A stretch of DNA of 64,000 nt from Fibrobacter sp. (GTDB taxonomy: Bacteria; Fibrobacterota; Fibrobacteria; Fibrobacterales; Fibrobacteraceae): positions 1-64,000 of the forward strand of contig JAKSIB010000010.1 in the NCBI GenBank assembly GCA_024399065.1, read 5' to 3'. Within the stretch, counting starts at the first letter, position 1; every line of letters starts with the position of its first letter. Shown here one piece after another: positions 24,512-64,000 of the stretch. Both the position numbers and the translations under genes were made by a program. The notes beneath the pieces are model-generated. The model worked only from the letters and a program-made list of their open reading frames with translations, was not told the origin of the DNA and made no database searches.

Positions 24512-24608
24512 TGTCTTTGCGAGGAGAGAATCGACGAAGCAAACGAAGCTTTTATTTTCAGGCATTTTCTGCTTCGATTGCCACGCCCTTCCGGGCTCGC
24601 AATGACAT
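24512..24608. repeat. TGTCATTGCGAG-ended inverted repeat element (complete)
   Basis: The left end is TGTCTTTGCGAGGAGAGAAT and continues with CGACGAAGC. The right end starts GCTTCGATTGCCACG at 24571 and finishes CTCGCAATGACAT. The ends are inverted and enclose about 30 bp. It is MITE-like in form, with no coding capacity. Confidence 0.75.
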
Positions 24609-53515: not shown

Positions 53516-53575
53516 ATCAGGGGGATCCCGGGTCATCCCCGTCAAGCGAGGACAAGCGCCCGGGATGACATGTTG
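53516..53575. repeat. GGGATGAC-type palindrome intruding into a gene
   Basis: Long inverted repeats (GATCCCGGGTCATCCCCG against CGCCCGGGATGACATG). It covers the last ten codons and stop of the adjacent APE fusion gene. Related to the element at 16357-16492. Confidence 0.8.
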
Positions 53576-55875
53576 GAGGCGGAATCATCTACAAGCTTCA
53601 TAAGAATGGAACCGGAAGAAAGGGACTTCGTTCCTGTTTCATCCACAAAGCTGAAGGTCAGTTTACCCTTTTCCTCATCGTAGTTCAACTGGAGTTCCAC
53701 AGGGGTATCCGGGAAAATGGGGCTGGTAAACTTGGTGCGGTTGATCTTTACGATTTCTGAAGGAACCTTCAAGAAGGTACGGGCCAGCAACAAGACCATG
53801 TTCACCTGGACCACGGCGGGCAACAGCTTGAATTCCGGGAAATGACCATCGTAGAAATCGCTGGTGATGGGGAACAAAAGCTTCGCTCTAAAGGAGCTTA
53901 CGTCCCTCTGCATTTTCAGAATCTTGAAGTTGGGGCTTTCAGGCAGGCTAAAGAGGTCCTGGATATCGCTCATCTTGATTTTTCCCATAAGGTCCTGGGG
54001 CAGTTCCTCCAGGTAGCGCCACTTCTTGGGCGTTACCGTATTTTCCAGATACTGACACAGGTAATTCCTAAAGAATTCGTTGATTTTAAGTTTTGCACAG
54101 TTGGCAAATTTTTCACGGCCGGCTTCGTTCAGCACGATAGCTGCAGCAAGGAACTGGCGCTTGCTTACCATAGGCACAACACGGACATCGTGTACAAGGC
54201 CAGTAGACTTGAGACGTATTTCCACTTCGGGCAAGGAAATTCTCTTTTCCTCAATTTTTACGATGGAATCAGCACGGCCCTTCAGCACAAAGCTCCCGTC
54301 GGCCTGAAGTTCCGCCAGGTCGCCGGAGGTAAAACCTTCGGGTTCCAAGACCGCAGCGGACTTGATGTTGAGGCAGCCATTTTCAGCAAGACTCATCTTG
54401 CAAAATTCAAAAGGAGTCCACAGGTTACCGGAGCCGCTTTGCCTATGGGCAATAATTCCTGTTTCTGAGCTTCCGTAGATTTCGGTAGTCCAGCATCCGG
54501 TCAGTTCATGAGTCTTCTGGGCCACATCTTCGGGCAGAACGCCGCCCGCAGAAAGGATCACGGGCACAGTCTTGAAATCAAGGGGCTTTTCCAGATCCAC
54601 CACCAGACGCTTCAAAAACGCTGGGCTAGAAACGACTACAGCCTGCGCGTCAGTAAGCTTTGTCAATTCCGTGGGGAAATCAAACCGACGCCTGCGGAAA
54701 GGAATGCCTGCAGCCAGCGGGAAAATCACCGCAAAGGGCAGGCCAAACATGTGGTGATGATTCACGGTACTGTAAATTTCACGACTCATCCACTGGTCGC
54801 CAAAATACTTCACCTGCTGTTCAACTTCTTTTTCCAGCTGGGAGAACATCTTGAAAACAGCCTTGGGCTTGCCTGTGGTACCGGAAGTGTACACCACCAT
54901 CTCGGCCTTGTCCATATCAAACTTGCCAAATCGTATTTCGTTAGTTTCCTGTTTAAGCAAGTCCTGGATCATGGTGGCACCACCAGGCGCAAAAGGCTCG
55001 TCGGTAATGAACCCGCAGTTTTCTTTCTGGATTTCCTTGATAAAGGCGTCCTGGCGGTTGGCAGAAACCAAGGCCTTACGACAGCTCTGGAGCATAGCCA
55101 CCAAGGCCACTAAAAAGTAGTAGACATCGTCGCAGTGAAGAATCCAGGGAATGTTCTCCTGGGATTCCAAGAAGATTCGAACCTTGGATACGTCAGAGAC
55201 AAAATCCTTCCACGTTGTAACCGAGGAGTCATCGAAGCAGAACTTCGCACCTTCGGGGCGGGAGTTCACTTCCAACTCGCTTACGGGAACATAGGACTGT
55301 AACTTTCTCTGCATCACTTTTCGAACCACAAACTCAATTGCAAAAAATAATCCGATTAAAATGTAGGAAATTAGCCCGTTGTACAAGGACCAAAGCCTGT
55401 CGGAACCCACGAACACAGTGAGGGCAGCAACACTTGCGTTTGCAACAAAGAAAATGCACCAACAAAAAGTCACCTTGTCGCAGTAATTTTCCACGTAGTT
55501 ACGGCTGGGGGAATTTTTAATGCTTTTGTCCCCAAGGTTTGCCATGCGAAAAACAAAACTGGGCTTTTTCCAGAGGGTAACGCCAAAGAACAGAAGCAGG
55601 CTCAAGTTTACAAGGACCGGGTAGAACTTGAGGAACAGCAAACTGTCCGCGAAGAGCGCCACCGTTCCGCAGACCAACATCAAAAGGACCAGGATTCCAT
55701 TCTTGGCCTTGCCACCGTCGGCATTCTTGGAGCGAGTGAAATTCAGGAACTGATAAAAAGCAAGCGCCAAAAGCAAAATGCTCAGGCGCCTAGGCGAAAG
55801 GTCCCACATGGTGAGACCACAATATACAAGAACCGGATAAAGTACGCTCAGCGCGGTAAAGAAAACCTTTCCCGC
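53542..55875 (-). CDS. Fused APE membrane protein, adenylation enzyme and dehydratase (ApeG-ApeH-ApeI)
   Basis: The 777-residue protein joins three parts found as separate ApeG, ApeH and ApeI in gammaproteobacterial clusters. Residues 1-190 have about six membrane helices (COG4648-like). About 195-640 is an AMP-forming ligase with VVYTSGTTGKPKAVF, EIYGSSETG, TSGDLAEL and a final GKIKMSDI lysine. About 650-777 is a hot-dog dehydratase with DFYDGHFPEFKLLPAVVQ. The ligase should activate the aryl starter for ACP. The last ten residues (NMSSRALVLA) are repeat-encoded. Start ATG 55875 follows the ACP stop by ten bases. Confidence 0.88.
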   Translation of the reverse strand, partial: AGKVFFTALSVLYPVLVYCGLTMWDLSPRRLSILLLALAFYQFLNFTRSKNADGGKAKNGILVLLMLVCGTVALFADSLLFLKFYPVLVNLSLLLFFGVTLWKKPSFVFRMANLGDKSIKNSPSRNYVENYCDKVTFCWCIFFVANASVAALTVFVGSDRLWSLYNGLISYILIGLFFAIEFVVRKVMQRKLQSYVPVSELEVNSRPEGAKFCFDDSSVTTWKDFVSDVSKVRIFLESQENIPWILHCDDVYYFLVALVAMLQSCRKALVSANRQDAFIKEIQKENCGFITDEPFAPGGATMIQDLLKQETNEIRFGKFDMDKAEMVVYTSGTTGKPKAVFKMFSQLEKEVEQQVKYFGDQWMSREIYSTVNHHHMFGLPFAVIFPLAAGIPFRRRRFDFPTELTKLTDAQAVVVSSPAFLKRLVVDLEKPLDFKTVPVILSAGGVLPEDVAQKTHELTGCWTTEIYGSSETGIIAHRQSGSGNLWTPFEFCKMSLAENGCLNIKSAAVLEPEGFTSGDLAELQADGSFVLKGRADSIVKIEEKRISLPEVEIRLKSTGLVHDVRVVPMVSKRQFLAAAIVLNEAGREKFANCAKLKINEFFRNYLCQYLENTVTPKKWRYLEELPQDLMGKIKMSDIQDLFSLPESPNFKILKMQRDVSSFRAKLLFPITSDFYDGHFPEFKLLPAVVQVNMVLLLARTFLKVPSEIVKINRTKFTSPIFPDTPVELQLNYDEEKGKLTFSFVDETGTKSLSSGSILMKLVDDSASNMSSRALVLA

Positions 55876-55885
55876 CATAGGACTC

Positions 55886-56143
55886 TTACTTAGCTTCCGA
55901 ATCCTGGATGAGGTTGTAGATAGCATCTACCACGTCCTGCATGGTGCGGACGGTCTTGAAAACCTCAGGATCGATGTTACGGGGAAGAATAGACTTCAGC
56001 TTCACAATCAAGTCGACAGCGTCAATGCTATCCAGTTCCAGATCTTCGTAAAGACGGGCTTCGGGGGTGATCTTGGCTTCGTCCATTTCGAAGTCTTCCA
56101 CCAAGGCAGACTTCATCTTTTCAAAAATTTGCTGTTTATCCAT
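55886..56143 (-). CDS. apeF: APE acyl carrier protein (ApeF-like)
   Basis: The 85-residue four-helix ACP has the phosphopantetheine site LELDSIDAVDL with Ser41. It is second of two ACPs; by order it matches ApeF. GATAA-type spacing and a short gap of 23 bp to the upstream ACP show an operon. It carries the growing polyene or aryl starter. Confidence 0.9.
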   Translation of the reverse strand: MDKQQIFEKMKSALVEDFEMDEAKITPEARLYEDLELDSIDAVDLIVKLKSILPRNIDPEVFKTVRTMQDVVDAIYNLIQDSEAK

Positions 56144-56166
56144 GGTAATGTTCCAAATAACCCGAT

Positions 56167-56439
56167 TTACTTTTGATTAGCGGCAACGTAGGCAGCGAGG
56201 GCGCTTACAGAGGCAAAATGTTTCTTGGTTTCTTCGTTCTGCACGGCAAAGGATACGCCAAAGGCATCCTTGATGGCAATGCCAAGTTCCAGTGCGTCGA
56301 TGGAATCGAGACCCAGACCTTCACCCTGAGCATTTGTACCGAAAATAGGTGCATCATCAATGATATCAGCGGGGGTGATATCTTCCAGTTCCAAAGACTT
56401 AATCAAAAGTTCTTTAATCTTGTTATTCAAATCGGACAT
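56167..56439 (-). CDS. apeE: APE acyl carrier protein (ApeE-like)
   Basis: The 90-residue ACP has the phosphopantetheine site GLGLDSIDALELG (Ser near residue 45) preceded by an unusual NAQGEG loop. It is first gene of the thirteen-gene leftward APE run. Together with the second ACP it probably divides starter loading and chain extension, as in other aryl polyene systems. Confidence 0.9.
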   Translation of the reverse strand: MSDLNNKIKELLIKSLELEDITPADIIDDAPIFGTNAQGEGLGLDSIDALELGIAIKDAFGVSFAVQNEETKKHFASVSALAAYVAANQK

Positions 56440-56445
56440 TATATA

Positions 56446-56498
56446 CCTTTACAAACTGTTTTACAAAAAAATAACAAAATCTCCCTTTATTGTAAAGG
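56446..56498. promoter_or_regulatory. Inverted repeat in the divergent APE promoter
   Basis: CCTTTACAA (56446-56454) and TTGTAAAGG (56490-56498) are perfect 9-bp inverted copies 35 bp apart in the 131-bp gap between the ACP and methyltransferase genes. A repressor or activator binding pair is plausible. Confidence 0.5.
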
Positions 56499-56570
56499 AA
56501 CCCCTAAATTCTTGCGTTTTGGACGGATATAAAAAACTATATTTTCACCAAAATTTAACCAGAGTCTTTC

Positions 56571-57662
56571 ATGTTCGACTTTTATATCAACGACAATATT
56601 TCCGCTATTGACGCCAAATTCGAAGCCCAGAAGATAGCCTTCGCCCCCCTCAGTTTTCAGGCAGCCCGCGCTCTTCGCGACATGGGCATTCTTGAACTGA
56701 TCAGCGAATCCCGCAAAAAGGGCATCACCATCTCCGAAATTTCCAAGAAGTTGAATATTTCCCTGTACGGCGTAGGCGTCCTTACTGAAATGGGTCTTGG
56801 CATGGGCGCCCTTAAGGTTCATCCGGATTCTGCCGAAGACGACCTCCGCCTGACTCTCGGCAAGGTAGGCTTCTTCCTTCTGAAAGACGAAATGACCCAG
56901 GTGAACATGGACTTTTCCCAGGACATCTGCTACCGCGGTGCCGAGAACCTCGAAGAATCCATCCGCGAAGGAAAGCCCGCCGGTCTCCCCCATCTGGGCA
57001 ACTGGAAAACCGTTTACCAAGGATTGTCCCAGCTTACCGACCAGCAGAAGAAGAGCTGGTTCGGCTTTGACCATTTCTATTCCGACCTGGCCTTCCCCGA
57101 AGCACTGCCTATCGTTTTCGAAAAGTCCGTAGGTCGCCTCTTTGACATTGGCGGCAACACTGCAAAGTGGGCCATCGCCTGCTGCAAGTACAATCCCAAC
57201 GTAAAGGTTTCCATCATCGACCTGCCGGGCCAGACTGCCGTTGCCGAAAAGAACGCTGCCGCTGCCGGTTTCGCAGATCGCATCGACACTATTCCCTGCA
57301 ATGTGCTAGACGAAACCACCAGTTTCCCGGAAGGAGCCAACGCTGTTTGGATGAGCCAGTTCCTGGACTGCTTCTCCCTGGAAGAAATCACAAAAATTTT
57401 GACCAAGATCCGTACTGCAGCCTCCCCCGAAACCGACGTGTACGTTCTTGAACCCCTGTGGGACAAGCAACGTTTCGAAGCCGCCGCCTACTCCCTGCAG
57501 GCAACCTCTTTGTACTTTACCTGCATTGCCAACGGTAACAGCAAGATGTACCGTTTCGAAGAACTGAAGAAGGCAATCGAAATTGCAGGCTTCGAGCTGA
57601 AGGAAGCCCACCACAATGTAGGCATCAACAGCTACTCCCTGCTGCGTTTCCGCACAAAGTAA
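56571..57662 (+). CDS. apeB: SAM-dependent O-methyltransferase (ApeB-like)
   Basis: The 363-residue protein has an N-terminal winged-helix dimerisation domain (about 20-100) and a class I methyltransferase domain. LFDIGGNTAKWAIACCKYNPNV is the SAM loop, with VSIIDLPGQ and IPCNVLDE after it and VWMSQFLDCF marking the acetylserotonin-methyltransferase-like subgroup. It may methylate the aryl head group, as seen for APE pigments. First gene of the rightward part of the cluster. Confidence 0.85.
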   Translation: MFDFYINDNISAIDAKFEAQKIAFAPLSFQAARALRDMGILELISESRKKGITISEISKKLNISLYGVGVLTEMGLGMGALKVHPDSAEDDLRLTLGKVGFFLLKDEMTQVNMDFSQDICYRGAENLEESIREGKPAGLPHLGNWKTVYQGLSQLTDQQKKSWFGFDHFYSDLAFPEALPIVFEKSVGRLFDIGGNTAKWAIACCKYNPNVKVSIIDLPGQTAVAEKNAAAAGFADRIDTIPCNVLDETTSFPEGANAVWMSQFLDCFSLEEITKILTKIRTAASPETDVYVLEPLWDKQRFEAAAYSLQATSLYFTCIANGNSKMYRFEELKKAIEIAGFELKEAHHNVGINSYSLLRFRTK

Positions 57663-57682
57663 GAACAGCCCCATCGCAGTTT

Positions 57683-58351
57683 ATGGAAAAAGTTTATATA
57701 GAACGATTCGCAAGTTTCGTGCCAACCGAGGCGATGCCCAAGCCGGACGTTTCCTTCGTACCCATGCTTACCCGCAGACGTCTAAGCAACCTGTCCCGTA
57801 TGGTGGTCTACACTAGCGAAAAGATTTCCAAGGACGAAAACGGCAACGTCCTTCCCCCCTGCAAAATTACATTTGCATCCCAGTATGGCGAAATTACGCA
57901 ACAGCTGAAGATTGCAGAAATTCTGATTGACACAGGCAAGGTTTCTCCATCCCATTTTAGTTCGTCTGTATTCAACACCCCGGTGGCAAACGCAACAATT
58001 CTCGAAAAGAATACCGCCGGATACTCCGCTGTTTACGGTGGCAAGAACGCTTTTTCCGACGGTCTTGCCGATTGTCTCGCCGCCATGGAAATCGAGTCCG
58101 CCGAAGATCGCAGTTTTATTTTTGCCGAAGAACTCATTCCAGAAAAGTACGCACCCATCGCTGGAGTTCCCTACCCCAACGTAGTCTGCGCCGTAGCCCT
58201 TCGCCTTACCAAGGACGAATCCAAGGCAGACAAGCGCTACAAGGATTTCGATTTGAACCTAGCTTTGCAAAACCTCAAGTTTTTGCAAGCTAATTTCAAC
58301 ACCGCTTCCGACCAGGCCCTGGCATTTATCATGTCCGTTCTCGAGTTATGA
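57683..58351 (+). CDS. apeC: Ketosynthase-like chain-length factor (ApeC-like)
   Basis: The 222-residue protein matches the N-terminal ketosynthase-like family found in APE clusters: FASQYGEITQQLKIAEIL and FSSSVFNTPVANATILEKNTAGYSA. The active-site Cys of true ketosynthases is absent, so it is likely a chain-length factor partner for ApeO. About half the size of a full ketosynthase, as is usual for ApeC. Its TGA overlaps the apeD ATG. Confidence 0.85.
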   Translation: MEKVYIERFASFVPTEAMPKPDVSFVPMLTRRRLSNLSRMVVYTSEKISKDENGNVLPPCKITFASQYGEITQQLKIAEILIDTGKVSPSHFSSSVFNTPVANATILEKNTAGYSAVYGGKNAFSDGLADCLAAMEIESAEDRSFIFAEELIPEKYAPIAGVPYPNVVCAVALRLTKDESKADKRYKDFDLNLALQNLKFLQANFNTASDQALAFIMSVLEL

Positions 58352-59127
58352 TTTTCGCAAAAATCAAGTATATTTGGAGAATCGTCGGCAAACTCAGTTC
58401 CTTTGCTGTTTTTGGCATAGGAAGTTTCATTCTTGGTTCGACGATTTTTCCAGTCCTTCACTTGATTTCCGGTTTTTCAGCAGTTCGCTTCCGCCGCATT
58501 ACCCGAAAGTTTATTTCAAGATCCTTTGTGGTTTTTGTCAAGTACATGGAGTTCGTTGGGACAATCAAGGTTTCCGTCCAGGAACGAGATCTTTTAAAAG
58601 GAGCCAAGTCCAAGGTCATCATCGCAAACCATCCATCCCTTTTGGATGTGGTGATTTTGATTTCCCTTGTGCCCAATGCAGACTGCATCGTCAAGGGAGC
58701 CTTAATTGACAATAAGTTTATCTCAGCAATCATACGAAACCTGTACATACCCAATACGTTGCCCTTTGAGGAACAGTTGGAGATGGCAGCAAAATCCATG
58801 GCCGAGGGCAACAACTTGATCATCTTCCCCGAGGGAACTCGTTCAAGAACTGGAGAGCCATGGCATTTCAAGAAAGGTGCCGCACGTTTTGCCATCTACA
58901 CCAAGAGCGACGTGGTGCCGGTTTATTTTGGTGGCAACGAAAAAATTGGTCTTAGAAAGTACGACAAGATGCTATCCCATAATCCCACGAATCCGTACAT
59001 ATACGAGTTGGAGGTACTCCCCCAGATTTCCGTAGCGGAGTACTTGAACATGCCCGCATCAAAAAGTGCAATTCTATTGACAGACGCAATGAAAAACGTC
59101 CTTGAACAAAAGCATCTAAATAGTTAA
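58348..59127 (+). CDS. apeD: PlsC-type acyltransferase (ApeD-like)
   Basis: The 259-residue membrane-associated protein has one or two N-terminal helices and the 1-acylglycerol-phosphate acyltransferase motifs: NHPSLLD (HX4D) near residue 93 and FPEGTRSRTGEPW. It may link the polyene carboxyl to the lipid anchor. Translationally coupled to apeC by ATGA. Last gene of the rightward APE part. Confidence 0.88.
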   Translation: MIFAKIKYIWRIVGKLSSFAVFGIGSFILGSTIFPVLHLISGFSAVRFRRITRKFISRSFVVFVKYMEFVGTIKVSVQERDLLKGAKSKVIIANHPSLLDVVILISLVPNADCIVKGALIDNKFISAIIRNLYIPNTLPFEEQLEMAAKSMAEGNNLIIFPEGTRSRTGEPWHFKKGAARFAIYTKSDVVPVYFGGNEKIGLRKYDKMLSHNPTNPYIYELEVLPQISVAEYLNMPASKSAILLTDAMKNVLEQKHLNS

Positions 59128-61036: not shown

Positions 61037-61070
61037 GATTGCCACGGCCCTTTGGGCCTCGCAATGACAT
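61037..61070. repeat. GCAATGACA-type half element
   Basis: GATTGCCACGGCCCTTTGGG at the left, CTCGCAATGACAT at the right end. It matches the right half of the longer elements at 24512 and 39358. Confidence 0.75.
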
Positions 61071-61090: not shown

Positions 61091-61127
61091 AAGAAACCGC
61101 AGCCTCAAGGTTGCGGTTCTTTTTTTA
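61091..61127. terminator. Bidirectional terminator between argH and the motor operon
   Basis: GAAACCGCAGCC and GGTTGCGGTTC form a stem around TCAA, with A6 on the left and T7 on the right. Confidence 0.85.
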
Positions 61128-61784
61128 TTTCTTGTCTTGGGGTACGAGGCGTTCCACAATGCGGAACAGATCATTATAGATTTCCAGGAAGTCTTCGATC
61201 CAAATGGGGTCGCGTTCGCCCACCACATGGAAGGTTTCTTCCAAAGTGTGGCGTGCGTTATAGGGACCCACCAAGGTACCTTCGGGCTGGGTAAAGCCCC
61301 CCTGCTGGTATGCGGTTACTGCAGCCTGGCGGGCACGATAACTACGGCGGAGTCGAGCAATCAAGGCGCCACGCAAAGAAAGCAATTCTTCGTGGGCGGC
61401 AATGGCGTTACCATCCTTGACCCAGGATTCAACCACATTCAAGCGACGGAGAATGGTGTCCCTTTCTGTATTAGGAATAAGCATTCGCTTATCAGCAAGA
61501 GTCTTCTTGATCTGTTCAGAAATTCCACCCAGGATTTGTTCATTCCAGAACACCATGGGATTTTCTGCAAAGCGGCTAGAATCGTCGGCCTTAGGCGTGT
61601 GAGTTGCAATCCAGCGATCAAGCTTATCAGCCACCATGCCAGCTTCGGGCAAACGGTCCACAGCCACATATTCGCCGGCGCGGTTCAGCAGGTTGTCCGC
61701 ATAGACCATACGCCAGTGCGGCAGCTTTCCGGTCTTACGGATAGCGTCGATATTCTGGCGAAGATTTTCTAAACGTTCCTGCAT
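61125..61784 (-). CDS. Helical protein of unknown function in the motor operon
   Basis: The family is not recognised. The 219-residue protein has no signal or membrane segment; it is rich in Glu, Arg and Leu and predicted to be mostly helical. It contains RRSYRARQAAVTAYQQGGF in the middle and a conserved-looking GERDPIWIEDFLEIYNDLFRIVERL near the end. It is third gene of the MotA-like, MotB-like run and probably interacts with the motor in the cytosol. No ribosome site is clear. Confidence 0.6.
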   Translation of the reverse strand: MQERLENLRQNIDAIRKTGKLPHWRMVYADNLLNRAGEYVAVDRLPEAGMVADKLDRWIATHTPKADDSSRFAENPMVFWNEQILGGISEQIKKTLADKRMLIPNTERDTILRRLNVVESWVKDGNAIAAHEELLSLRGALIARLRRSYRARQAAVTAYQQGGFTQPEGTLVGPYNARHTLEETFHVVGERDPIWIEDFLEIYNDLFRIVERLVPQDKK

Positions 61785-61805
61785 TTTATAACCTTCAGTT
61801 TAACT

Positions 61806-61840
61806 CTGCTTCGATTGCCACGCGTTGCTCGCAATGACAG
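61806..61840. repeat. GCAATGACA-type half element
   Basis: CTGCTTCGATTGCCACGCGT at the left and TTGCTCGCAATGACAG at the right. It separates the OmpA-like gene from the helical protein gene. Confidence 0.72.
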
Positions 61841-61845
61841 CCCTA

Positions 61846-62481
61846 CTATTTCTTGTCCTTCATCTGGAGCGGGGTCACACCGATTTCCACGCGACGGTTC
61901 AAACGACGGTGTTCTTCGCTGTCGTTGGGATACTTGGGCTGATGTTCGCCAAAACCAGCAGCAAAAAGACGTTCCGGCGGGAAACCTTCCTTGATCAAGG
62001 TCTTCACCACGTTCACTGCACGTTCCGTAGAAAGGTTCCAGTTGGTATATGTCTTGGACTTCACCGGAGTATCATCGGTAAAGCCACTGACCATGATTAC
62101 GTCGGTAGAATCCAAGGCTTCAAGCAAGCCCTTGCTGATGCCCCTGATAACACCGACGCCTTCGGGAGTCAAGTCGGCTCCGTTAATGGGGAAAAGGAAA
62201 CTTGCCTGGATCTGGATCTTGCCATCTTCCAAGGCAATAAGGCCTGCTTCGATGGAAGTCTGCAAGCTCTTGGAGAGAAGGGCGTTTCGCTCTGCGGCAA
62301 TCTTGCGCATTTCTTCCTGACAGCTCAGCACTTCTTCTTCGGTACGGGTAAGGTCTTCGGCCTTCTGTTCCTTGAGGGTAGCCATGGCGACAAACGCCAA
62401 GATGAACAATGACACCAATGCGATGCCAAGGTCCGTGTAGGCCATCCAAGGATTGTTGTTTTCGTCCTTGCGGAACCGCAT
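61846..62481 (-). CDS. MotB/OmpA-type stator protein
   Basis: The 211-residue protein has a short basic N-terminus and one transmembrane helix (about residues 15-38). In it, MAYTDLGIALVSLFILAFVA places an Asp (D17) like the proton-carrying Asp of MotB (IAYADF). A short linker precedes a C-terminal OmpA-like peptidoglycan-binding domain: GFTDDTPV, NWNLSTERAVNVVKTL, GFGEHQPKYPND and LNRRVEIGV. It should anchor an ion-driven complex to the wall. GGAGGG lies eight bases before the ATG, inside the end of the MotA-like gene. Confidence 0.9.
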   Translation of the reverse strand: MRFRKDENNNPWMAYTDLGIALVSLFILAFVAMATLKEQKAEDLTRTEEEVLSCQEEMRKIAAERNALLSKSLQTSIEAGLIALEDGKIQIQASFLFPINGADLTPEGVGVIRGISKGLLEALDSTDVIMVSGFTDDTPVKSKTYTNWNLSTERAVNVVKTLIKEGFPPERLFAAGFGEHQPKYPNDSEEHRRLNRRVEIGVTPLQMKDKK

Positions 62482-62484
62482 GGA

Positions 62485-64000
62485 TTATCCCTCCACCTTG
62501 TCTGCGGATGCGGCCGGAGCCATGGCGGTACCGCGCTGAGTCTGTTCCAGGACTTCCAGGAGGATTTCCTGGGTCTTGACGGCGTTTTCCATAAGCACTT
62601 CGCTGGCGCGTTCGTGGAAGGCTTCCAGAGACTGGTTGAGGTGTTCCACAAAGTTTTCTTCTTCTTCGTGTTCAGCAGTATCGCCGCTGAGCTTTTCAAG
62701 AATGGTTTCCAGACCGGCGCGAAGCATTTCAAGGTTGGCGCTAAGTTCGGACTGGTTCACGCGCATAAGTTCTGCGGTTTCCACGATGTTTCCGCCAAGA
62801 GCGTCGGTAGCTTCCTTTTCCTTGACCACGCGGTTGTCGATGCTTTCAGTGAGAGCCTTCTGGGCTTCAAGCAGCACCGCGGATGTTTCGGAAAGTTTCT
62901 GGAAAGCTGCCAGAATATCGTTGGAAAGAGTTCCAAGCTTTTCGGACACGGAAGCAGAAAGTTCTGCAGAACCGGCCTGAGCCTTTTCTGCAACCTGAAG
63001 GGCAACGTTCTTGAGAGTTTCCAGACCTTCGCGCTGGGCATCCACATTGGCAGTAGTCTTTTCTTCAAGACGCTGCATGAATTCGTTCCACTGAACGTTG
63101 GACTGCTTGACCTGATCGGCAACGGAAGCGCCGATGGTTTCAGTAGTGCCGGACATTGCTGCAGCGGAAGCAGATGCAACACCATCAAGGCCAGCCTTCA
63201 CATCGGAAGCAACCTTAGCCAAGGCATTTTCCACATTGCCGGAAACGCCCTGCAGGCCTTCCTTCACGCCACCAGCGATATCGCCGAGGCCAGCGTTCAA
63301 AGCAGAAGACAAACCGTTCAGCTTGTCGTCCAGCTTTGCCGGGATGGATTCCACAGAAGTGGACAAAGCCTTCACGCTCTGTTCCATAGGAGCAAAGGCG
63401 CCATTAAGAGAAGAACTGACGGAATCGCCAAGATTCTGGACAGCACCGTTCATGCCGCTCACCACAGTTGCGAGAGAATCGCTGAAGGACTTTGTGGTAT
63501 TGGACATTTCAGCAGAAATCTTTGCAGTAGCAGAAGTGAGTTCCTCGCCCACCATTGCCACTACGCCGCTGAGGCCCTCCTGCACAGCGGAAGCAACCTT
63601 TGCCAAGTTTTCTTCGACGGAATCAAAGAGGCGGCCAAGTTCATCCTTGCTCTGTTCCACTTCATCGTCAGAACCCTGGAGGTTCAAGGTCAATGCATCA
63701 AGGCGAGCCATGAAACCGTTAAGGCTTGCGTTCAGCAAAGTACGGCTAGCATTCAAAATCAAGGCAGCGAACAAACCGCAAAGAGATGTTCCGAAGATTC
63801 CCTTCATACCCTGGAAGAGAAGTTGGATGGTATCCAAGGTTCCCTGGGTGGTAGAATTGTCGATGGCGCCACCGGCTGTAGCAACGGAGTACATCAAGCC
63901 GAAGAAGGTTCCCATGAGGCCCAGAAGAATCACGGTGCTACCGGCGCTGCGGGGAACGGAGATTCCCACGTTGCTGTTCAACACTTCGTAAGCGATGGGA
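62485..64000 (-). CDS. MotA/TolQ/ExbB-type channel with a long helical tail (5' end outside window)
   Basis: The frame is open to the right edge, so the N-terminus is missing. Visible residues include two membrane helices of a proton channel (GSTVILLGLMGTFFGLMYSV and MKGIFGTSLCGLFAALILNA). They are followed by about 400 residues of coiled-coil and apolipoprotein-like helical tail (repeated EELTSATAKISAEMS..., ASAVQEGLSG, SGNVENALAKVASDVKAGLD). The TolQ/ExbB class fits the channel; the very long cytosolic tail recalls ZorA rather than MotA. It is first visible gene of the motor operon. Confidence 0.88.
   Translation of the reverse strand, partial: PIAYEVLNSNVGISVPRSAGSTVILLGLMGTFFGLMYSVATAGGAIDNSTTQGTLDTIQLLFQGMKGIFGTSLCGLFAALILNASRTLLNASLNGFMARLDALTLNLQGSDDEVEQSKDELGRLFDSVEENLAKVASAVQEGLSGVVAMVGEELTSATAKISAEMSNTTKSFSDSLATVVSGMNGAVQNLGDSVSSSLNGAFAPMEQSVKALSTSVESIPAKLDDKLNGLSSALNAGLGDIAGGVKEGLQGVSGNVENALAKVASDVKAGLDGVASASAAAMSGTTETIGASVADQVKQSNVQWNEFMQRLEEKTTANVDAQREGLETLKNVALQVAEKAQAGSAELSASVSEKLGTLSNDILAAFQKLSETSAVLLEAQKALTESIDNRVVKEKEATDALGGNIVETAELMRVNQSELSANLEMLRAGLETILEKLSGDTAEHEEEENFVEHLNQSLEAFHERASEVLMENAVKTQEILLEVLEQTQRGTAMAPAASADKVEG

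What the first reader, a model, noticed from the sequence alone, without database searches (positions are those of the whole stretch)
61125..64000. Ion-driven motor module with a very long channel tail
The operon encodes a TolQ/MotA-like channel with about 400 residues of coiled tail, a MotB-like stator with the key Asp and OmpA domain, and an unknown helical protein. The pairing of long-tailed channel with OmpA stator resembles ZorAB of Zorya defence, yet the third gene is not a helicase or nuclease. It may be a separate motor type with a cytosolic output protein.
Basis: inference. Interest (0 to 1): 0.58.

Follow-up and report, generated by a model that had tools for sequence, protein, structure and literature searches.

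The report
Core Fibrobacter motor with detachable engine
Fibrobacter bacteria carry an ion-driven motor related to the anti-virus Zorya machines, but here it is a fixed, inherited part of the chromosome, and related bacteria keep its working end while having no motor at all, which suggests that the engine is an add-on to an older unknown cell machine.

Summary
The truncated gene is a 604-residue ZorA-like channel with conserved Thr131/Ser172 and a ~400-residue tail; a 211-residue ZorB (Asp17, OmpA domain) and a 219-residue helical protein (Y) follow. Upstream, outside the window, lies a helical gene X. The order X-ZorA-ZorB-Y equals Zorya type III (DUF3348-ZorA-ZorB-DUF2894). ZorB fits the ZorB3 model best; Y's C-terminus matches DUF2894 by profile (E 1.5e-5; 0 of 100 shuffles as good); X has no demonstrated match to DUF3348. 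It does not look like mobile defence: 75 of 80 genomes of the genus carry it, and those without are 62-88% complete. Unexpectedly, X is present in 120 of 126 genomes of the class and in 0 of 41 outside it. In the 19 motorless loci read (families f3-f5 and two genera of the window's family) the gene between X and Y is a membrane-tethered spacer ending in the same tip as ZorA, with no channel and no ZorB. So X, tip and Y look like the core, and the motor a detachable drive. What X and Y do is unknown. The Zorya comparison is right; 'separate motor type' is only partly supported.

The parts
61095..61118 (.). strong stem-loop with T-run, transcription end of the operon (shared with convergent argH)
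   Evidence: 10-pair stem, (L002 596-619); sequence
61125..61784 (-). Y: 219-aa helical protein, last gene of the operon; C-terminal domain related to DUF2894
61164..61268 (-). Y C-terminal motif GPYN...RDPIW.EDFLE.Y (residues 173-207), the part shared with all motorless relatives and with DUF2894
   Evidence: position coordinates
61846..62481 (-). ZorB: 211 aa, one membrane helix, OmpA peptidoglycan-binding domain
62431..62433 (-). codon of ZorB Asp17, the presumed ion-carrying aspartate
62485..64000 (-). ZorA: channel plus long tail; its start lies at contig position 64299, outside the window (604 aa in all)
62530..62787 (-). ZorA tail tip, about residues 505-590 (RVNQSE...LMENAVKTQEILLEVLEQ), shared with motorless relatives
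63784..63786 (-). codon of ZorA Ser172 in the channel
63907..63909 (-). codon of ZorA Thr131 (GTFFG) in the channel

Best explanation
A vertically inherited, chromosomal ZorAB-type ion motor, related to Zorya type III, that drives or gates a conserved cytosolic module made of X, the ZorA tail tip and Y. Proposed working: two ZorB anchor to peptidoglycan; ions pass between ZorB Asp17 and the ZorA Thr131/Ser172 ring; the ZorA pentamer turns with its ~400-residue rod; the rod's conserved tip holds X and Y in the cytoplasm. In relatives without a motor the same tip is merely tethered to the inner membrane by one or two helices and a coiled or proline-rich spacer, so tethering X and Y at a distance from the membrane is the basic function and rotation a later add-on or a lost extra. 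Shown: genes, order, conserved residues, distribution, presence and absence of the motor. Inferred: 5:2 assembly, rotation, binding of X and Y to the tip, a housekeeping rather than antiviral role.
For: ZorB3 best model at 148.7 bits against 71.6 for ZorB1, while three MotB-type proteins from the same class score 62-79 for ZorB3, never better than for ZorB1. The ZorA channel aligns to solved ZorA with Thr131/Ser172 on its T147/S184; both invariant also in two Proteobacterial ZorA3. Locus in 75 of 80 genomes of the genus, the 5 lacking it being 62-88% complete; same neighbours across genera. X in 120 of 126 genomes of the class, 0 of 41 outside. Motorless X-spacer-Y in 19 of 19 motorless loci read, from 6 genera; the spacers match only the tail part of the ZorA profile. 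The motor label needs 2 changes on the X tree.
Against: Binding of X and Y to the tip rests on gene order and co-conservation only. Genes adjacent in an operon can be lost separately for trivial reasons. Zorya III of Stenotrophomonas protects E. coli from phage (PMC8565338, passages), so a relative could still be defensive even if core. Models of X and Y are of modest or low confidence and match no solved fold.
Confidence: 0.6

Rival explanations
1. A diverged Zorya type III anti-phage system fixed in the chromosome: ZorAB senses envelope damage, and X and Y (counterparts of the DUF3348 and DUF2894 proteins) carry out or regulate the response.
For: Same gene order and similar sizes as DUF3348-DUF802-OmpA-DUF2894; ZorB3 and ZorA3 are the best models; Y C-terminus related to DUF2894; Zorya III from Stenotrophomonas protects E. 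coli.
Against: Present in nearly every genome of the genus at one place between housekeeping genes; relatives keep X and Y without a motor; viral contigs gave only partial, generic OmpA-end hits; X and Y hit none of the PADLOC accessory models, which do ring on a Proteobacterial control.
Confidence: 0.25
2. An envelope or surface-movement motor: the drive serves adhesion, secretion or crawling on fibres, with the lipoprotein and beta-helix protein as its outer parts.
For: A lipoprotein gene and a beta-helix gene with a signal-like N-terminus sit in the operon, present with it in 15 and 14 of the 15 other motored family loci read; a lipoprotein match is also found beside some motorless loci.
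Against: Motility in F. succinogenes has not been demonstrated and no known motility genes were found (PMC3079729, passages); motorless lineages keep X, Y and tip; the tail is expected to point into the cytoplasm.
Confidence: 0.1
3. A Tol-Pal or ExbBD relative energising the outer membrane.
For: MotA/ExbB superfamily channel (below the curated cut-off).
Against: The genome has 6 MotA_ExbB matches; those listed lie on other contigs. Here the B subunit has an OmpA domain and the A subunit a long tail, with no TolA/TonB-like gene seen in the operon.
Confidence: 0.03

Closest known systems
Zorya type III (ZorA-ZorB with DUF3348 and DUF2894 proteins)
   Same: gene order, similar sizes, ZorB3 as best model, channel residues, remote match of Y to DUF2894
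   Different: X has no demonstrated DUF3348 match; fixed and class-wide in inheritance; relatives without a motor; extra lipoprotein and beta-helix genes
ZorAB of Zorya types I and II
   Same: channel with long cytoplasmic tail, ZorB with Asp and OmpA domain; a solved ZorA is the best PDB match to the ZorA profile
   Different: no ZorC/ZorD or ZorE; ZorB scores half as well with ZorB1 as with ZorB3
Flagellar MotAB
   Same: superfamily, Asp and Ser/Thr ring, OmpA domain
   Different: no flagellar genes here; long tail; MotB-type proteins of the class show no preference for ZorB3
TolQR / ExbBD
   Same: channel superfamily
   Different: other family members exist in the genome; their B subunits lack an OmpA domain (recalled)

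Membership tests
Zorya type III | ZorA3-type channel with long cytoplasmic tail | tested here: met
   (E 1.7e-12 profile to profile); but PADLOC scores are weak (about 31 bits against up to 978 for a true member)
Zorya type III | ZorB3-type stator with Asp and OmpA domain | tested here: met
Zorya type III | DUF3348 gene before zorA | tested here: inconclusive
   a helical gene X sits there, but no Pfam or PADLOC match, 0 of 21 genomes with PF11828 (no control genome rang), hhalign score 20.6 against best shuffle 20.4
Zorya type III | DUF2894 gene after zorB | tested here: inconclusive
   no Pfam or PADLOC match; C-terminal 40 columns match DUF2894 at E 1.5e-5, 0 of 100 column shuffles as good
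Zorya type III | protection against phages | not testable with these tools
   needs plating assays
Anti-phage defence system in general | patchy, mobile distribution (recalled expectation) | tested here: not met
Flagellar MotAB | flagellar gene context | tested here: not met
   no flagellar genes among the neighbours read; only one ZorB/MotB-type match in the genome at E <= 1e-20
Tol-Pal | TolR/TolA/Pal genes beside the channel | tested here: not met

The most novel reading that the evidence does not exclude
X, the coiled tip and Y form an undescribed class-wide bacterial machine hung from the inner membrane; an ion motor was plugged into it or unplugged from it at least twice, and Zorya type III is a redeployed branch of such a housekeeping motor rather than the other way round.
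Probability: 0.35. Interest if true: 0.8.

Novelty: new variant of a known kind. Interest (0 to 1): 0.55.

Why it matters
What a ZorAB motor turns inside the cell is unclear. Here nature has run the deletion: the same tip and partners exist with and without the engine, so the parts that belong to the output can be told from the parts that belong to the drive, and counterparts of the type III accessory proteins can be studied in a setting that looks like housekeeping.

Tried and rejected
Homology of X to DUF3348: hhalign with 15 rows (E 0.17) and 35 rows (E 0.053; 0 of 100 shuffles reached it, but the best shuffle was 20.4 against 20.6) - left open. Tail tip against the DUF802 tip: E 0.012, score 21.8 against best shuffle 18.9 and reversed 19.1, in register but weak. 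Matches of the ZorA profile to apolipoproteins, in Pfam and in solved structures, I take as helical-repeat composition, not kinship. Viral contigs: 39 loci, all partial matches at the OmpA end. Genome scan with the f3/f4 form of X: 78 stretches matched a pattern, 8 encoded a relative; 7 of the 8 titles name Fibrobacteria or Fibrobacteres and one only 'bacterium'; the patterns were narrow, so absence from other phyla is not shown. Fold searches of X and Y: nothing at E <= 0.001. ZorB tree: ZorB3 and the Fibrobacter ZorB lie apart from three MotB, but long branches meet and the Fibrobacter group has support 63/48 only. P0005 alone found no solved structure. One search missed X in one genome (G125) that later calls found (62, 105).

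Full report
Observation. On the minus strand the genes run tadA, lipoprotein (298 aa), beta-helix protein (239 aa), X (303 aa, TTG start), ZorA (604 aa), ZorB (211 aa), Y (219 aa), then a bidirectional stem-loop terminator and convergent argH. ZorA and ZorB are 3 bases apart; X and ZorA 17.

The motor parts. ZorB: OmpA domain E 6.6e-16; best PADLOC model ZorB3, 148.7 bits, against 71.6 for the best ZorB1. A true Proteobacterial ZorB3 scores 379.5, so this is a distant relative. Control: ZorB from two other Fibrobacterales loci score 132.9 and 147.1 with ZorB3 and 70.7 and 78.0 with ZorB1; three other MotB-type proteins from the class score 62-79 with ZorB3 and 73-82 with ZorB1. ZorA: a profile of 13 relatives finds solved ZorA 8qyd first (E 3.5e-12) and places Thr131 and Ser172 on its Thr147 and Ser184 (that those two line the channel of E. 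coli ZorA is recalled, while a Ser/Thr ring facing the ZorB aspartate is stated in PMC11890865, passages). Both residues are invariant in 8 of 8 aligned channels including two Proteobacterial ZorA3.

Link to Zorya type III. PMC8565338 (passages) defines it as the motor pair flanked by DUF3348 and DUF2894 genes and reports that the Stenotrophomonas system protects E. coli. In four annotated plasmid records the order is DUF3348, DUF802, OmpA, DUF2894; a fifth record carries no annotation. The 27 plasmid records that match DUF2894 are the same as the first 27 of the 30 listed ZorB hits (130 further ZorB records were not listed). Position for position, X stands where DUF3348 stands and Y where DUF2894 stands. 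Neither is recognised by Pfam or PADLOC, although PADLOC recognises both in a control. Profile to profile, the last part of Y matches DUF2894: probability 79.5, E 1.5e-5, score 34.2 against a best of 18.4 in 100 column shuffles, aligned over GPYN / GPLN. X to DUF3348 stays open.

Not a mobile defence locus. With ZorB as query, 104 of 126 genomes of the class match at E <= 1e-15, which includes weaker MotB-type hits. In the window's genus 75 of 80 have it; the 5 without are 62, 65, 71, 71 and 88% complete, and the same 5 lack X. In the 15 other motored family loci read, X, ZorA, ZorB and Y are found in all 15 (one Y cut at a contig end), the lipoprotein in 15, the beta-helix in 14, tadA in 13 and argH within reach in 6.

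The unexpected part. X was found in 120 of 126 genomes of the class, all 16 genera, and in 0 of 41 genomes of the phylum outside it; the six misses are 62-88% complete. Y, less conserved, was found in 114 of 167. The ZorA channel was found at E <= 1.6e-58 in 93 of 126 genomes. One further genome, G113, has a match at 1.9e-6, on another contig than its X. The 26 genomes of genera g2, g4 and g13-g16 have X but no such channel and no full ZorB: their best ZorB-query hits are 1.6e-18 or weaker, over the OmpA part, against 2.1e-40 or better for complete motored copies; two fragments, G084 and G109, lie at 8.0e-42 and 3.6e-29.

I read 20 loci chosen by X or Y, of which one (L114, family f2) is motored. 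In the other 19, X, a middle gene and Y stand in the same order. In 17 the middle gene matches the ZorA profile only from position 208 on, strongly at the C-terminal tip (domain E 9.1e-12 to 8.5e-31); in the two f5 loci the tip match is weak (1.4e-6 and 2.1e-6). No ORF of the motorless loci matched the ZorB profile. None of 17 spacers has the GTF[FY]G or FG[TS]S channel motifs that all 7 tested ZorA have; each has one or two membrane-helix-like stretches (three windows in one, two of them overlapping) near its N-terminus. In g2 and g4 the spacer is only 180-258 residues, with PKIE-type repeats instead of a coiled coil in the sequences printed. The tip reads RVNQxEF ... ENAxKTQEIL in the motored family and in close variants elsewhere. 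So the tip, X and Y stay together while channel, ZorB and rod length come and go.

Direction of change. On a tree of 35 X proteins motored rows are family f2 plus most of f1; the g2/g4 rows sit inside this group as sister to the motored f1 rows; f3-f5 form the other side. Two changes are the least. Either the motor was gained once in the order and lost once, or lost twice. Two long branches (f3, f2) make details unsure. If Y really is a DUF2894 relative, an old motored state is more likely; this is not settled.

Mechanism. Shown: genes, residues, order, distribution. From published work: ZorA5B2 assembly, and the need for peptidoglycan binding, ion flow and the tail, in types I and II (PMC11890865, passages). 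Inferred here: the rod tip is the docking site for X and Y; the membrane-bound spacer suffices for their basic job; the motor adds rotation or gating. X and Y are predicted mostly or wholly helical (pLDDT 68.4 and 76.7, pTM 0.60 and 0.41; the X modelled is that of L124) and match no solved fold. I cannot say what X and Y do.

Literature. Searches for Zorya with Fibrobacter (one paper with one mention of each, not read), DUF3348/DUF2894/DUF802/PRK09040 (three papers), Zorya type III/ZorF/ZorG, ZorA/ZorB and rotary-motor phylogeny showed no description of this operon or of its motorless relatives in the listings. PMC12505986 (passages) treats MotAB evolution and does not mention Fibrobacter in the text held. 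PMC3079729 (passages) reports no known motility genes in F. succinogenes.

Verdict. It works like a ZorAB motor and is a relative of Zorya type III; I do not file it as a member because the DUF3348 feature is not shown and the distribution is not that expected of a defence system. The new element is the motorless form of the same module.

Noticed in passing
window 61037-61065, 61813-61835, 24576-24603: REP-like palindromic repeat ATTGCGAG...GTGGCAATC, 3 copies in the window against 0.00 expected; two of them flank gene Y.
   Followed up: partly
window 53542-59127: AMP-binding enzyme, two acyl carrier proteins, a methyltransferase, a ketosynthase-like and an acyltransferase-like gene in a row; looks like an aryl-polyene-type cluster (recalled likeness, not tested).
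   Followed up: no
PADLOC-DB models PDLC00652-PDLC00658: PADLOC-DB labels DUF3348 as ZorG and DUF2894 as ZorF, the reverse of the PADLOC paper and of PMC11890865.
   Followed up: no
L101, L103, L107, L110, L111: In families f3 and f4 the motorless locus sits among housekeeping-looking genes that recur (an RluA-like gene on one side in some; DNA polymerase III delta-like, GreA-like and ArgJ-like genes on the other); names by eye.
   Followed up: no
L097, L098, L100, L116: In genera g2 and g4 the gene before X encodes a secreted thioredoxin-like protein (CPHC motif, by eye) instead of the beta-helix protein.
   Followed up: no
PMC6851124, table 4: FSU_0286, a 'Fimbriae-associated domain protein' flagged ExbB/MotA, is slightly less abundant on cellulose; it might be the F. 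succinogenes ortholog of this ZorA. Not checked.
   Followed up: no
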